Positions 604 to 23,980 of a DNA stretch of 39,930 bases are shown one piece after another. Numbering within the stretch: position 1 is the first letter of the stretch; every line of letters begins with the position of its first letter. Source of the stretch: a virus; the IMG/VR virus record IMGVR_UViG_3300045967_000353, positions 1 through 39,930 of that record. One strand, 5' to 3'. Under the pieces are notes generated by a model. That model saw only the letters and a program-made list of their open reading frames with translations, was not told where the DNA came from and searched no databases. Position numbers and translations under genes: made by a program.

Positions 604-690
604 AATGGAAAATTGAAAATGGATAATGGAGAATTATGGAGTCTATTCGGAGTTTTTCATTCTCCATTCTCCATTCTCCATTGTGCATTC
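604..690. repeat. AT-rich heptad hairpin element H1
   Basis: An inverted repeat made of ATGGAGA-like heptads. The left arm holds AATGGA/AATGGAGAAT units and the right arm their complement (ATTCTCC units), with a central linker containing ATTATGGAGTCTATTCGGAG. It sits exactly between the coat stop codon (691) and the ribosome-binding site of the next gene. It is absent from the other allele, where only 11 bp separate the same two genes (38927-38937). The linker is almost the same as that of H6 (22381-22482). Confidence 0.8.
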
Positions 691-18135: not shown

Positions 18136-18185
18136 CGAGGTGTTACGGTGAGTGACATCATGCAACACCATGCACCACAGAAAAC

Positions 18186-18247
18186 CCTTTCAGGGGGCTG
18201 TCGACTTCAGGCGACAGGGGAATGAAAGGTTGCTCTGACAAGAGCAA
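18186..18247. repeat. Left-end hairpins of the TnpB element
   Basis: An imperfect hairpin spans 18186-18229: CCTTTCA pairs with TGAAAGG outside and CTGTCG with CGACAG inside. A second, TTGCTC-tgacaa-GAGCAA, lies at 18230-18247. Subterminal hairpins like these are recognised by Y1 TnpA in IS200/IS605-type elements, but no tnpA is present. Confidence 0.5.
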
Positions 18248-18300
18248 CATCCTCAAACTTTCCTGGTAGAACACAGCAACGGTTTTGTACAATTAGAGTT

Positions 18301-19347
18301 ATGAGCATGCTGACCTATAACTACCGGATAAAAGACGCAACCTCGCGGCATCATCTCTTGCAGATGGCCTCTGCGATCAACTACGTCTGGAACTATTGCA
18401 ATCAGGTCAGCATCAAAGCCTTCAAACGCGACAGAACCTTTCTGACTGCCTACGACCTGCACAAGCTCACTGCTGGCACGTCGAAAGACTTGCGGCTGTC
18501 TGCGGATACGATTCAACAGGTCTGTACCGAGTACGTGACGAGGCGTCGCCAGTTCAAGAAGATCAAGCTTCGGTGGCGCAGCAAGAAGAAGTCCCTGGGC
18601 TGGATTCCCTTCAAGGCCGCCTATATCCGTGTCGATGGGCCAACCGTGACCTATTGCGGCCATCGCTTTCGCCTCTGGCTGTCGCGTCCCCTCGTTGGCC
18701 AGGTCAAGACGGGCAGTTTCACGCAGGATAGTCGCGGCAGATGGTACGTCAGTTTGCAGTGTGACGTGCCCGAGCTGCATGGCCCTCCCGCTCCTGCCGA
18801 AGTCGGCATTGACCTTGGGTTGAAAGACCAGATTGCCTGTACGCATCTCCCCGAGCCCCTCAGCCGCGCCAATATCACGCGGCACTATGCCGCGCCATTG
18901 GCTCAAGCCCAACGTGCCAGGAAGAAGCGACGCGTCAAAGCCCTCCAGGCCAAGATGGCCAACGTGCGCAAGGACTGGACGCACAAGGTCACGACCGCCA
19001 TTGCCAGGGTGTCCCGCCTGATTGCCGTCGGCAACGTCTCCAGTCCCAGGCTTGCCAAAACTCGGTTTGCGAAGTCGACCTATGACGCTGCCTGGGGCAG
19101 CACCCGTACCCTTCTTGCATACAAAGCCATCAGGCTTGGAGGGCAGTACGTGGAGGTCAACGAGTTCCGGTCCAGTTGTACTTGCTCGGCTTGTGACGCG
19201 ATCACCGGCCCGAGTGGACTGAGGCAACTGGGCGTAAGAGTGTGGACGTGTAGCGCCTGTGGTGCCGTGCATCAGCGCGATATCAATAGTGCACACATTC
19301 ACCTCCGTCGCGGACGTGCGACGCTTTCAGGAATCCGCCTGCTTTAG
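18301..19347 (+). CDS. tnpB: TnpB RNA-guided endonuclease
   Basis: 348 residues. RuvC-I is EVGIDLGLKD (Asp171) and RuvC-III HQRDINSA (Asp327). The zinc finger is Cys295/Cys298 with Cys317/Cys320. At the normal RuvC-II position the catalytic Glu is Gly (Gly244 in LIAVGNVSS), while VNEFRSS holds Glu288 just before the zinc finger. This fits the TnpB branch reported to have a relocated active-site Glu, so the protein may still be active. It is full length and has no frameshift. The reRNA/omegaRNA would overlap the 3' end. Confidence 0.85.
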   Translation: MSMLTYNYRIKDATSRHHLLQMASAINYVWNYCNQVSIKAFKRDRTFLTAYDLHKLTAGTSKDLRLSADTIQQVCTEYVTRRRQFKKIKLRWRSKKKSLGWIPFKAAYIRVDGPTVTYCGHRFRLWLSRPLVGQVKTGSFTQDSRGRWYVSLQCDVPELHGPPAPAEVGIDLGLKDQIACTHLPEPLSRANITRHYAAPLAQAQRARKKRRVKALQAKMANVRKDWTHKVTTAIARVSRLIAVGNVSSPRLAKTRFAKSTYDAAWGSTRTLLAYKAIRLGGQYVEVNEFRSSCTCSACDAITGPSGLRQLGVRVWTCSACGAVHQRDINSAHIHLRRGRATLSGIRLL

Positions 19348-19355
19348 CTGGCGGA
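19334..19355. repeat. Right-end hairpin of the TnpB element
   Basis: TCCGCC pairs with GGCGGA around a loop that itself contains GCT-tt-AGC. It straddles the tnpB stop codon, as the right end and guide-RNA scaffold do in this family. Confidence 0.45.
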
Positions 19356-19480
19356 GGACGTCAAGGTGCACCATGCCTGTGATATGTGGAGGGGGGTGCC
19401 GCCGCGTGATACCGTTGACACAACTCCAGGCTTTGCTGTGGAAAAGCCCCGCCGGCAGCCTCGGCAGCTCCTGGCGGAGC

Positions 19481-19519
19481 AATGCAGAATGGAGAATGGA
19501 GAATGGAGAATGGAGCATG
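19481..19519. repeat. AT-rich heptad repeat H3 (one arm only)
   Basis: Four tandem near-copies of the heptad ATGGAGA end in an ATG that starts the next gene. There is no opposite arm. The 130 bases before it, after the TnpB element, contain no gene I can support. Confidence 0.7.
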
Positions 19520-20560: not shown

Positions 20561-20953
20561 ATGCACATCTCCGAGACGCTCGAGGGCCAGATCGCCCAGC
20601 GGCTGTTTGGGTGGACCTGGGGACGGTGTTCTGAGCGGTGCCCCTACGCGCACGAAGGGTATCATACGGCAGAGGGGGCGCATGTCTGGCGCCTGCCCGC
20701 CTACACCACCGACCCGGCCGCCACGGCGCGGGTGTGGCAGTGGGTGGAGACCCGCGGCATGCCCATTCTCAGGATCCAGGTGGACTATGACGCGGTGCTC
20801 GGCATTGAGTGCATCGTGCAGTGTGGACGCCTGGAGGTGGACGGCTGGGGCGCCACCTGGCCCGAGGCCCTGTGCCGCGCGGCGCTGGCGCTCGCGGAGC
20901 GAATGGAGCATGCAGAATGGACAATGGAAAATGAGGGGAAAAAGCTCTTATAA
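20561..20953 (+). CDS. Phage ABA-sandwich-like protein (130 aa)
   Basis: ATG 20561. The pattern DPAATARVWQWVETRG, a central beta stretch and WGATWPEALCRAALALAE is that of the phage ABA sandwich domain found in many phage accessory genes. The last 16 residues (MEHAEWTMENEGKKLL) are encoded by repeat H5, so the insertion has altered or extended the C-terminus. Last plus early gene before the convergent tail operon. Confidence 0.6.
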   Translation: MHISETLEGQIAQRLFGWTWGRCSERCPYAHEGYHTAEGAHVWRLPAYTTDPAATARVWQWVETRGMPILRIQVDYDAVLGIECIVQCGRLEVDGWGATWPEALCRAALALAERMEHAEWTMENEGKKLL

Positions 20954-20986
20954 TTCTCCATTTTCCATTCTCCATTCTCCATTCTT
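20901..20986. repeat. AT-rich heptad hairpin element H5
   Basis: The left arm has AATGGAGCATGCAGAATGGACAATGGAAAATG units, the linker AAGCTCTTATAATTCTCC, and the right arm a row of ATTTTCC/ATTCTCC units. The left arm is translated as the tail of the 20561-20953 protein. It lies between convergent operons and could work as a bidirectional terminator-like hairpin. The 90 bases after it, to 21076, hold no supported gene. Confidence 0.75.
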
Positions 20987-22482: not shown

Positions 22483-23980
22483 TCGCGGTGGGCGGCTGCT
22501 CCAGACACAGCCGCGTACTGGTCCAGGGGCCCTCGGTGAGCCGCAGACAGAGCGCTGGCGGCACCGCCGGCAGGGTCGCCGCGGGCTGCCACGTCTGCCC
22601 GCCATCGAGCGCGTATTCGAGCACCACGGCCGGCGAGGGCTGCGGCGGGGTGCCGGGGCGACACGCCGGCGGGATGGGGCCCAGAAGGGCTTCCATCTGG
22701 GCGGTCACATCGACCGGGGGCACCCCGGCCTGCTGCATGGCCGCCACGATGCGGGCGTTCATCGGCCAGGGCCAGAGCGGCGTGCTGGTGAGCTGCCCGG
22801 CCACCACCTGCCGGCACAGGCCGGCGTACTGCTCCCACAGCACCCCCCCGCCGGTCGCCGCGGCCAGCGTGGCGCCGTGCCGGATGGCGCTCGGGGTCCA
22901 ATTGCTCGTGAAGGTGGGCGGCGTGCCGCCGATCGCGGTCAGGTCCGTGACCCAGTTCGGCCCGCCGGCGGGGCCACTCGTCGCCACGCTGAAGCGGGCG
23001 CTGTCTTTGGCGGCCAGCTCGGGGGGGAGCCAGATGACGAGCTGGGCGATCCGGACGCCACTGGTGGGGTGGTAGTCGCCTTGCTGCCAGTGGCTGCCCG
23101 CGTCACTGGTGGCAAACACCACCGCGGCGGGGTGATAGGTGGCTCCTGGGGGCACATAGAAGATGGACGCCAGCAGCGTCGAGTCCTGCGTTGCAAACAG
23201 TTCCAGCACGCCTTCCGGCTCGGTAATGCGTCCCAACGTGTCCCACGTGCTCAGCATATTTTCCGCCCAGACGGTGTCTTGCCCGTAGCCGATTTCCAGC
23301 GACACCGTCGGGTTGCTGGTCTGATGCAGATTGGCCTCCCAGCGCGTCCAGCAGCGGCGGATGGTGTTGAAGCGCCGTCCGGCGCCCCCCGCCCCGGCGG
23401 CGATCTGCTTGCGCGCGGGACCAAAGGCGGCACAGTCTTCCAGCAGGTTGCGGTGCCCTTCGACGCGAATATTGGTATCCCCGTCGTGCCCCACATCCCA
23501 GGAGACGACCCGGCGCACGATCCAGTCCGAGCCCCGCAGGGCCAGGTTGCTGTTGTCGCCGCGCGTGACGTTGATGCCCTCCAGCACACCGTAGGCGCCT
23601 TCGAGGTCGGCGGGCCGGCGCTGATCTTCACCATCGATGGTCACCAGCCCGTCGGTGAGCGCCCGGATGGTGATGGGCTGCGCGGCCGTGCCGGCCAGCG
23701 TGGCCGGGGCATCGAGCATATTGGCACTGCCGGTGTACACGCCATCGACCAGACACAGCACACTGCCGGGCTGGGCCACGGCCCAGAAGGCGCTGATGGT
23801 GAAGGGCTGGGTCACGGATGTTCCGCTGCCTGTCCCACCAGGAGCCGCGTAGTGGGTACAGGGAGCGGCCAGCAGCAGGCGCGGCAGGAGAAGCAGGAGG
23901 CAGAAGAATGGAGAATGGACAATGGAGAATGGAGAATGGCGGAAGAAGGCTCTTATAATTCTCAATTTTCCATTCTGCAT
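22469..23980 (-). CDS. Secreted or virion beta-helix protein (503 aa)
   Basis: Starts inside repeat H8 (ATG 23980) and its last codons lie in H6. The first ~25 residues are translated heptad repeat with basic residues. They are followed by FFCLLLLLPRLLLAA, giving what looks like a signal peptide. Residues ~60-260 show short repeating strands with Asn/Gly/Val ladders (ITIRALTDGLVTIDG, WIVRRVVSW, NLLEDCAAFG) typical of a right-handed parallel beta-helix. Residues ~330-500 are a mixed domain. Enzyme activity (lyase or hydrolase) is plausible but unproven. Lies in the tail operon. Confidence 0.65.
   Translation of the reverse strand: MQNGKLRIIRAFFRHSPFSIVHSPFFCLLLLLPRLLLAAPCTHYAAPGGTGSGTSVTQPFTISAFWAVAQPGSVLCLVDGVYTGSANMLDAPATLAGTAAQPITIRALTDGLVTIDGEDQRRPADLEGAYGVLEGINVTRGDNSNLALRGSDWIVRRVVSWDVGHDGDTNIRVEGHRNLLEDCAAFGPARKQIAAGAGGAGRRFNTIRRCWTRWEANLHQTSNPTVSLEIGYGQDTVWAENMLSTWDTLGRITEPEGVLELFATQDSTLLASIFYVPPGATYHPAAVVFATSDAGSHWQQGDYHPTSGVRIAQLVIWLPPELAAKDSARFSVATSGPAGGPNWVTDLTAIGGTPPTFTSNWTPSAIRHGATLAAATGGGVLWEQYAGLCRQVVAGQLTSTPLWPWPMNARIVAAMQQAGVPPVDVTAQMEALLGPIPPACRPGTPPQPSPAVVLEYALDGGQTWQPAATLPAVPPALCLRLTEGPWTSTRLCLEQPPTARNNE

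What the first reader, a model, noticed from the sequence alone, without database searches (positions are those of the whole stretch)
18301..19347. TnpB with Gly at the usual RuvC-II Glu and a Glu next to the zinc finger
Asp171 and Asp327 are kept, but the RuvC-II position reads VGNVSS. Glu288 in VNEFRSS is where a relocated catalytic Glu has been reported in some TnpB clades. The protein could therefore be active with a rearranged site, or be a binding-only protein.
Basis: partly seen in the sequence, partly recalled or inferred. Interest (0 to 1): 0.55.

Follow-up and report, generated by a model that had tools for sequence, protein, structure and literature searches.

The report
Phage-borne TnpB with relocated catalytic glutamate
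A small jumping element in this phage carries a TnpB protein, probably an RNA-guided DNA cutter, whose third catalytic acid sits at an alternative place already described in other TnpB proteins and in Fanzors, so it is probably a working enzyme of a known kind rather than a broken one.

Summary
In detail: D171 and D327 are kept, the usual RuvC-II Glu is Gly244, and Glu288 lies just before the zinc finger. This is not a one-off mutation. In 87 informative relatives, Gly replaces the canonical Glu in 86, Glu288 is kept in 86, and both Asp in all 87. In 79 TnpB frames from one relative's genome plus the window, Glu never occupies both sites. Purifying selection (dN/dS 0.16), a right-end omegaRNA with strong covariation including a pseudoknot, CCAC at the left end in 12 of 13 copies, and guides that differ in every copy point to a live, mobile, RNA-guided element, not a domesticated dead repressor. 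The relocated Glu ('Ealt') is published for Fanzors and a clade of TnpBs (PMC10711439). This family is more compact: 0 of 116 unique members fit the search pattern printed there. Cleavage and atomic distances were not tested. Verdict: a new member of a known kind, tnpB-only IS200/IS605-type, probably active. The more novel lead lies in relatives whose right end supplies a start codon to the flanking phage gene.

The parts
18175..18178 (+). CCAC abutting the left end: predicted target site and TAM
   Evidence: CCAC lies at the same place before the left-end hairpin in 12 of 13 copies compared, each in a different flank; L015 lacks it
18179..19364 (+). Whole element, about 1186 bp, tnpB only
   Evidence: Left end from comparison of 13 copies; right end = last base shared by all copies...GTCAA. 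No Y1 transposase in the 39,930-base record
18301..19347 (+). tnpB, 348 aa, RNA-guided endonuclease TnpB family
   Evidence: NF040570 guided_TnpB E 8e-48, 163.6 bits against cut-off 100; PF07282 E 6.6e-17, 61.9 bits against 26.3; dN/dS 0.16 against L014 and L015
18811..18813 (+). RuvC-I Asp171 (D-L-G)
   Evidence: 87 of 87 relatives
19030..19032 (+). Gly244 at the canonical RuvC-II Glu position
   Evidence: G in 86 of 87, S in 1; aligns with Glu of ISDra2 TnpB
19162..19164 (+). Glu288, relocated catalytic Glu (Ealt)
   Evidence: E in 86 of 87, A in 1; 115 of 116 in the larger set
19183..19260 (+). Zinc finger Cys295, Cys298, Cys317, Cys320
   Evidence: 87 of 87 relatives keep all four
19279..19281 (+). 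RuvC-III Asp327
   Evidence: 87 of 87 relatives
19306..19323 (+). omegaRNA stem-loop 1, inside the tnpB 3' end; its loop carries GACGT (19313-19317)
   Evidence: 99.4% of cells paired, change on both sides at all 6 pairs
19334..19355 (+). omegaRNA terminal hairpin, spanning the tnpB stop codon
   Evidence: 90.7% of cells paired, change on both sides at 8 of 9 pairs
19358..19362 (+). ACGTC, 3' half of the pseudoknot with 19313-19317
   Evidence: 93.8% of cells paired, change on both sides at all 5 pairs
19365..19384 (+). Predicted guide: first 20 nt of the right flank
   Evidence: Sequence differs in all 13 copies compared, mean 4.8 of 20 positions matching; the length of 20 is recalled for TnpB, not measured

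Best explanation
This is a tnpB-only insertion element of IS200/IS605 type sitting in a phage. TnpB binds an omegaRNA made from its own 3' end (stem-loop 1, terminal hairpin, pseudoknot) whose guide is the DNA next to the right end. It recognises a target next to CCAC and cuts it with a RuvC site made of Asp171, Glu288 and Asp327. Glu288 takes the role of the usual RuvC-II Glu, which is Gly244 here. By analogy with known TnpBs, cutting the vacated donor site would favour retention of the element; the transposase must act in trans. Shown: the residues, their conservation, the use of one Glu site or the other but never both, the omegaRNA covariation, the shared ends, purifying selection, and Y1 transposase next to family members elsewhere. 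Inferred: cleavage, catalysis by Glu288, CCAC as TAM, guide length, and the retention role.
For: Conservation of G244, E288, D171, D327 (86, 86, 87, 87 of 87; Ealt 115 of 116). Exclusive pattern: of 80 rows, 57 have Glu only at the canonical place, 15 only at the alternative place, none at both, 7 at neither, 1 unaligned. Model pLDDT 81.7: D171 ends strand 166-171, G244 is in strand 238-245, E288 follows strand 282-287, D327 is in helix 326-343, the topology described for Fanzor, whose Glu is on the loop between the fifth strand and the TNB domain (PMC11423790, passages). Best structural matches: TnpB 8h1j Z 21.0, rmsd 9.4, 322 aligned; mimivirus Fanzor2 9b0l Z 18.8, rmsd 10.6, 334 aligned. 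omegaRNA: 94.1% of cells paired against at most 53.2% when slid; 222 cells changed on both sides against a shuffled mean of 64. dN/dS 0.16. In MAG G001 a Y1 transposase lies just upstream of a family tnpB on 4 contigs (C226, C228, C43, C236). Published: DPhiG plus Ealt is a described TnpB clade (PMC10711439, section 23).
Against: No cleavage data for this clade were found. Model pTM is only 0.48 and whole-chain rmsd to known TnpBs is 9-12 A; the distance of E288 to the two Asp was not measured. One family member (L007/L108) has Ala at 288. The sister clade in the same genome has Glu at neither place, so loss of this Glu is tolerated in mobile elements. No empty site was found to prove the ends: the guide search gave 0 hits and the nearest related phage differs downstream. 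L015 lacks CCAC.
Confidence: 0.78

Rival explanations
1. A nuclease-dead, binding-only protein (TldR-like repressor) that keeps omegaRNA and DNA binding but no longer cuts.
For: The canonical RuvC-II Glu is absent; it lies in a phage, as some TldRs do (PMC13418256, passages); a sister clade lacks Glu at both places.
Against: D-E-D remains complete with Glu288, which is kept in 86 of 87 relatives. Guides differ in all 13 copies compared, whereas TldRs are described as tied to particular target genes and linked non-transposon genes. I noticed no recurring partner gene in the loci read, but did not search for one systematically.
Confidence: 0.12
2. A decaying copy: a tnpB remnant without function in this phage.
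For: No transposase in the record; at least one relative is broken (L023), and several MAG copies contain stops.
Against: Full-length ORF, dN/dS 0.16 between the window and L014/L015, all catalytic and zinc-finger residues and all omegaRNA helices kept.
Confidence: 0.07
3. E288 is a structural residue of the TNB/zinc-finger region and the third metal ligand is another acid.
For: Distances were not measured; in most members the residue after G244 is Asp or Asn (N 48, D 38 of 87).
Against: Position 245 is Asn in the window and in about half of the family, so it is not a conserved acid; canonical TnpBs do not have Glu at 288 (0 of 57).
Confidence: 0.06

Closest known systems
Ealt TnpBs with DPhiG motif (PMC10711439, 2023)
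   Same: D-L-G at RuvC-I, no Glu at the canonical place, Glu six residues before the zinc finger.
   Different: Compact: 107-114 residues between DxG and Glu, so 0 of 116 members fit the printed search pattern that asks for 120-160. Y1-type transposase neighbours; whether their DPhiG clade holds this family could not be told.
Fanzor (Fanzor2 of mimivirus 9b0l; SpuFz1, GtFz1)
   Same: Ealt location and RuvC-TNB fold; 9b0l is the second structural match.
   Different: Fanzors have DPG, are larger, and come from eukaryotes or their viruses.
ISDra2 TnpB (8h1j, 8bf8, 8exa)
   Same: Best structural match and best match by sequence to a natural protein among solved structures; omegaRNA at the right end (recalled for ISDra2).
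   Different: Canonical Glu in RuvC-II; no Glu where E288 lies.
TldR, TnpB-like nuclease-dead repressors (PMC13418256)
   Same: TnpB descendants, some found in phages.
   Different: RuvC inactivated and linked to non-transposon genes; neither seen here.

Membership tests
TnpB (RNA-guided endonuclease TnpB family) | Scores over the curated family model | tested here: met
   NF040570 163.6 bits, cut-off 100; PF07282 61.9 bits, cut-off 26.3; PF01385 25.3 bits is under its cut-off 30.5
TnpB (RNA-guided endonuclease TnpB family) | omegaRNA encoded at the right end, overlapping the tnpB 3' end | tested here: met
   Covarying stem-loop, hairpin and pseudoknot in 52 sequences
TnpB (RNA-guided endonuclease TnpB family) | RNA-guided DNA cleavage | not testable with these tools
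   Needs a bench assay
Ealt TnpB, DPhiG clade | DPhiG at RuvC-I | tested here: met
   D171-L172-G173
Ealt TnpB, DPhiG clade | Glu six residues upstream of the zinc finger and none at the canonical place | tested here: met
   E288 x6 C295xxC298; G244
Ealt TnpB, DPhiG clade | Printed search pattern: 120-160 residues between DxG and Glu (a retrieval filter rather than a definition) | tested here: not met
   114 in the window; 107-114 in the family; 0 of 116 fit the pattern
Ealt TnpB, DPhiG clade | Falls in that clade in a tree with their sequences | not tested
   Their sequences were not on hand; my tree holds only MAG G001, IMG/VR and GTDB relatives
IS200/IS605 element | Y1 (HUH) transposase in the element | tested here: not met
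   None in the window record; present beside family members on 4 contigs of MAG G001. So tnpB-only in the window
IS200/IS605 element | Short fixed motif at the left end, no target duplication | tested here: inconclusive
   CCAC at 12 of 13 left ends; no empty site found
TldR | Inactivated RuvC triad | tested here: not met
   Triad complete if E288 counts
TldR | Guide kept between relatives | tested here: not met
   13 copies, 78 pairs, mean 4.8 and at most 10 of 20 positions matching

The most novel reading that the evidence does not exclude
In a subgroup of this same family (right ends of GTCAC type), the element's right end does three jobs: omegaRNA scaffold, transposon end, and a translated leader. 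A start codon overlaps the tnpB stop (ATGA) and reads the omegaRNA hairpin in frame (M...KPRPSGRGAVT) into the flanking phage gene, so an element inserted at the 5' edge of a gene gives that gene a new start and hides its own insertion.
Probability: 0.4. Interest if true: 0.6.

Novelty: new member of a known kind. Interest (0 to 1): 0.38.

Why it matters
It shows that loss of the canonical RuvC-II Glu should not be read as nuclease death when Glu stands six residues before the zinc finger, which matters for annotating TldR-like repressors. It points to a compact (about 345 aa), phage-rich Ealt TnpB family that the printed Ealt search pattern would miss and that could serve as small RNA-guided nucleases, with a covarying omegaRNA, a predicted CCAC motif and a clean test (E288A). 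The sister clade lacking both Glu residues, in part still paired with transposases, would allow a direct comparison.

Tried and rejected
Empty site: the 18-base start of the guide had no match in IMG/VR and only itself in the window with up to 3 mismatches; the related phage L141 (80% identical upstream gene) has unrelated DNA downstream. So the ends rest on comparison of copies only.

Structural distance: structure prediction gives no coordinates (checked), so the E288 to D171/D327 distance was not measured. The pdb_via table gives ranges only.

TldR reading: rejected as the main explanation because guides differ in every copy compared and the triad is complete.

Literature: searches. 'TnpB' with 'Ealt' gave only PMC10711439. 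Nothing on a right-end start codon feeding the flanking gene appeared (one search, listings only). Read: PMC10711439 section 23 and passages; passages of PMC10432273, PMC11423790, PMC13418256. No whole paper was read. ISXfa1 TnpB is active there, but whether it is Ecan or Ealt is not stated in what I read, so I do not use it as proof.

Limits of counts: rests on 102 loci, 106 protein rows, 89 unique, of which 2 had gaps at these positions. One search used 79 of 89 frames from 90 of the 102 places found in MAG G001; 10 frames under 240 aa were dropped, 1 locus gave no hit, and 12 places were not fetched. The alignment took 52 of about 70 right ends found: those over 90 nt, mostly the GTCAC type, and some others were left out, and 17 family members had no recognised end motif there. 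The viral scans keep only the best 80 loci, so counts are lower bounds. The frame test (13 of 16) picked the longest-reading start in two frames and is biased; with the overlapping start fixed (ATGA or GTGA, 12 elements, read by eye) the leader frame is the longest of three in 9 (binomial p 0.004). L108 and the DPG clade lacking both Glu count against a simple 'always one Glu' rule.

In one search I joined the two flanks to look at the empty-site reading frame; the left slice ended one base before the last C of CCAC, so the frames printed there are off and I draw nothing from them.

Full report
The ORF at 18301-19347 is intact and 348 aa long. It scores 163.6 bits against the NCBIfam model for RNA-guided TnpB (cut-off 100). 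Alignment with ISDra2 TnpB puts D171 and D327 on the two RuvC Asp and Gly244 on the RuvC-II Glu. Glu288 is followed by six residues and the CxxC of the zinc finger.

This arrangement is a fixed property of a family, not a lesion. In 87 informative unique relatives, the canonical place holds Gly in 86 and Ser in 1; position 288 holds Glu in 86 and Ala in 1; both Asp and the four zinc-finger Cys are in all 87. In a larger set of 116 unique proteins the residue seven before the first zinc-finger Cys is Glu in 115 and Ala in 1.

Glu is used at one place or the other. MAG G001, a Proteobacteria MAG by its record title, holds 102 TnpB-like matches. From 90 of them I obtained 79 frames of at least 240 aa. 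With the window these are 80 rows: Glu only at the canonical place in 57, only at the alternative place in 15, at both in none, at neither in 7, unaligned in 1. In the tree the window lies with family members of G001 (99/94), the family is a supported group, and its sister (100/99) is a six-copy clade with DPG and Ser at both places. A second pair with Glu at the alternative place (L266, L280) falls far away, next to canonical TnpBs, though on a long branch.

The structural evidence is partial. AlphaFold2 gave mean pLDDT 81.7 and pTM 0.48. D171 ends a strand, G244 is in the RuvC-II strand, E288 directly follows the next strand and precedes the zinc finger, and D327 is in the last helix. This is the order described for Fanzor, where the Glu lies on the loop between the fifth strand and the TNB domain (PMC11423790, passages). 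The best structural matches are TnpB 8h1j (Z 21.0, rmsd 9.4, 322 aligned) and mimivirus Fanzor2 9b0l (Z 18.8, rmsd 10.6, 334 aligned). Distances could not be measured.

The element. Copies share a right end ...GTCAA, after which the sequence differs in all 13 copies compared (mean 4.8, at most 10 of 20 positions matching in 78 pairs). At the left end CCAC abuts the shared sequence in 12 of 13 copies. This makes the element 18179-19364 with a predicted guide from 19365. There is no Y1 transposase in the record, but in G001 one lies directly upstream of a family tnpB on four contigs (C226, C228, C43, C236; two of the four transposase or tnpB frames hold stops). So the window copy is a tnpB-only, IS200/IS605-type element that must be moved in trans.

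The omegaRNA. In 52 right ends, three helices, namely stem-loop 1 inside the tnpB 3' end, a terminal hairpin, and a pseudoknot between the loop and the last bases before the guide, pair in 94.1% of 1024 cells, against at most 53.2% when slid by 1-3 columns; 222 cells are changed on both sides against a shuffled mean of 64.1. The window RNA folds better than 197 of 200 shuffles (z -2.36).

Selection. dN/dS between the window and L014 or L015 is 0.16, and 0.12-0.18 in the RuvC part (Nei-Gojobori).

Taken together, the best reading is an RNA-guided nuclease with a relocated third acid. Cleavage is inferred, not shown. The binding-only reading is less likely but remains open, and the existence of a sister clade without either Glu, in which three copies lie beside a Y1 transposase (C28, C179, C118), shows that proteins lacking both occur.

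What is known. The alternative Glu and its DPhiG and DPG clades are published (PMC10711439, section 23). The printed search pattern asks for 120-160 residues between DxG and Glu. The window has 114, the family 107-114, and 0 of 116 members fit it. The family may therefore be absent from that pattern's yield; whether it is in their tree I could not tell. I file the window protein as a new member of a known kind.

A lead outside the window. In the subgroup with GTCAC-type right ends, 16 of 17 elements have an ATG or GTG overlapping or just before the tnpB stop that reads past the right end (typically through ...KPRPSGRGAVT) into the flanking sequence. With the overlapping start fixed, the leader frame is the longest of three past the right end in 9 of 12 (p 0.004). 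The downstream proteins include a DNA methylase (L071, PF01555, residues 41-322) and a GcrA-type regulator (L332, PF07750, residues 26-188) whose domains begin soon after the leader; a third, from L052, had no Pfam hit. This suggests that the element replaces the start of the gene it interrupts. It is not a property of the window copy, whose stop has no such start.

Noticed in passing
L051, L052, L063, L071, L081, L082, L087, L322, L332, L334, L345 and others, at the tnpB stop: In the GTCAC right-end subgroup a start codon overlaps or just precedes the tnpB stop and the omegaRNA hairpin is read as a leader (KPRPSGRGAVT type) into the flanking phage gene; 16 of 17 elements.
   Followed up: partly
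L122, L124, L125, L126, L130, L131 (MAG G001): A six-copy TnpB clade with DPG at RuvC-I and Ser at both the canonical and the alternative Glu places, three of them next to a Y1 transposase; a candidate nuclease-dead or differently rearranged TnpB that still moves.
   Followed up: partly
L023:3076-4033: A relative of the window element whose tnpB middle is replaced by a 186-aa ORF (no Pfam hit) while the left end, tnpB start and right-end omegaRNA remain.
   Followed up: partly
L002-L006, L010 upstream of tnpB: MAG copies carry a small ORF just upstream of the tnpB start, resembling a ribbon-helix-helix protein by eye (recalled resemblance, not searched); there is no room for it in the window copy.
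   Followed up: no
window 657-683, 19487-19513, 20915-20984, 23906-23939: A 7-base repeat unit (GAATGGA type) recurs at four places on both strands, 14 matches against 0.04 expected; one array lies about 120 bases downstream of the element.
   Followed up: no
L075 and L016/L031: Some phage contigs hold two family elements close together, with different right-end types in L075.
   Followed up: no
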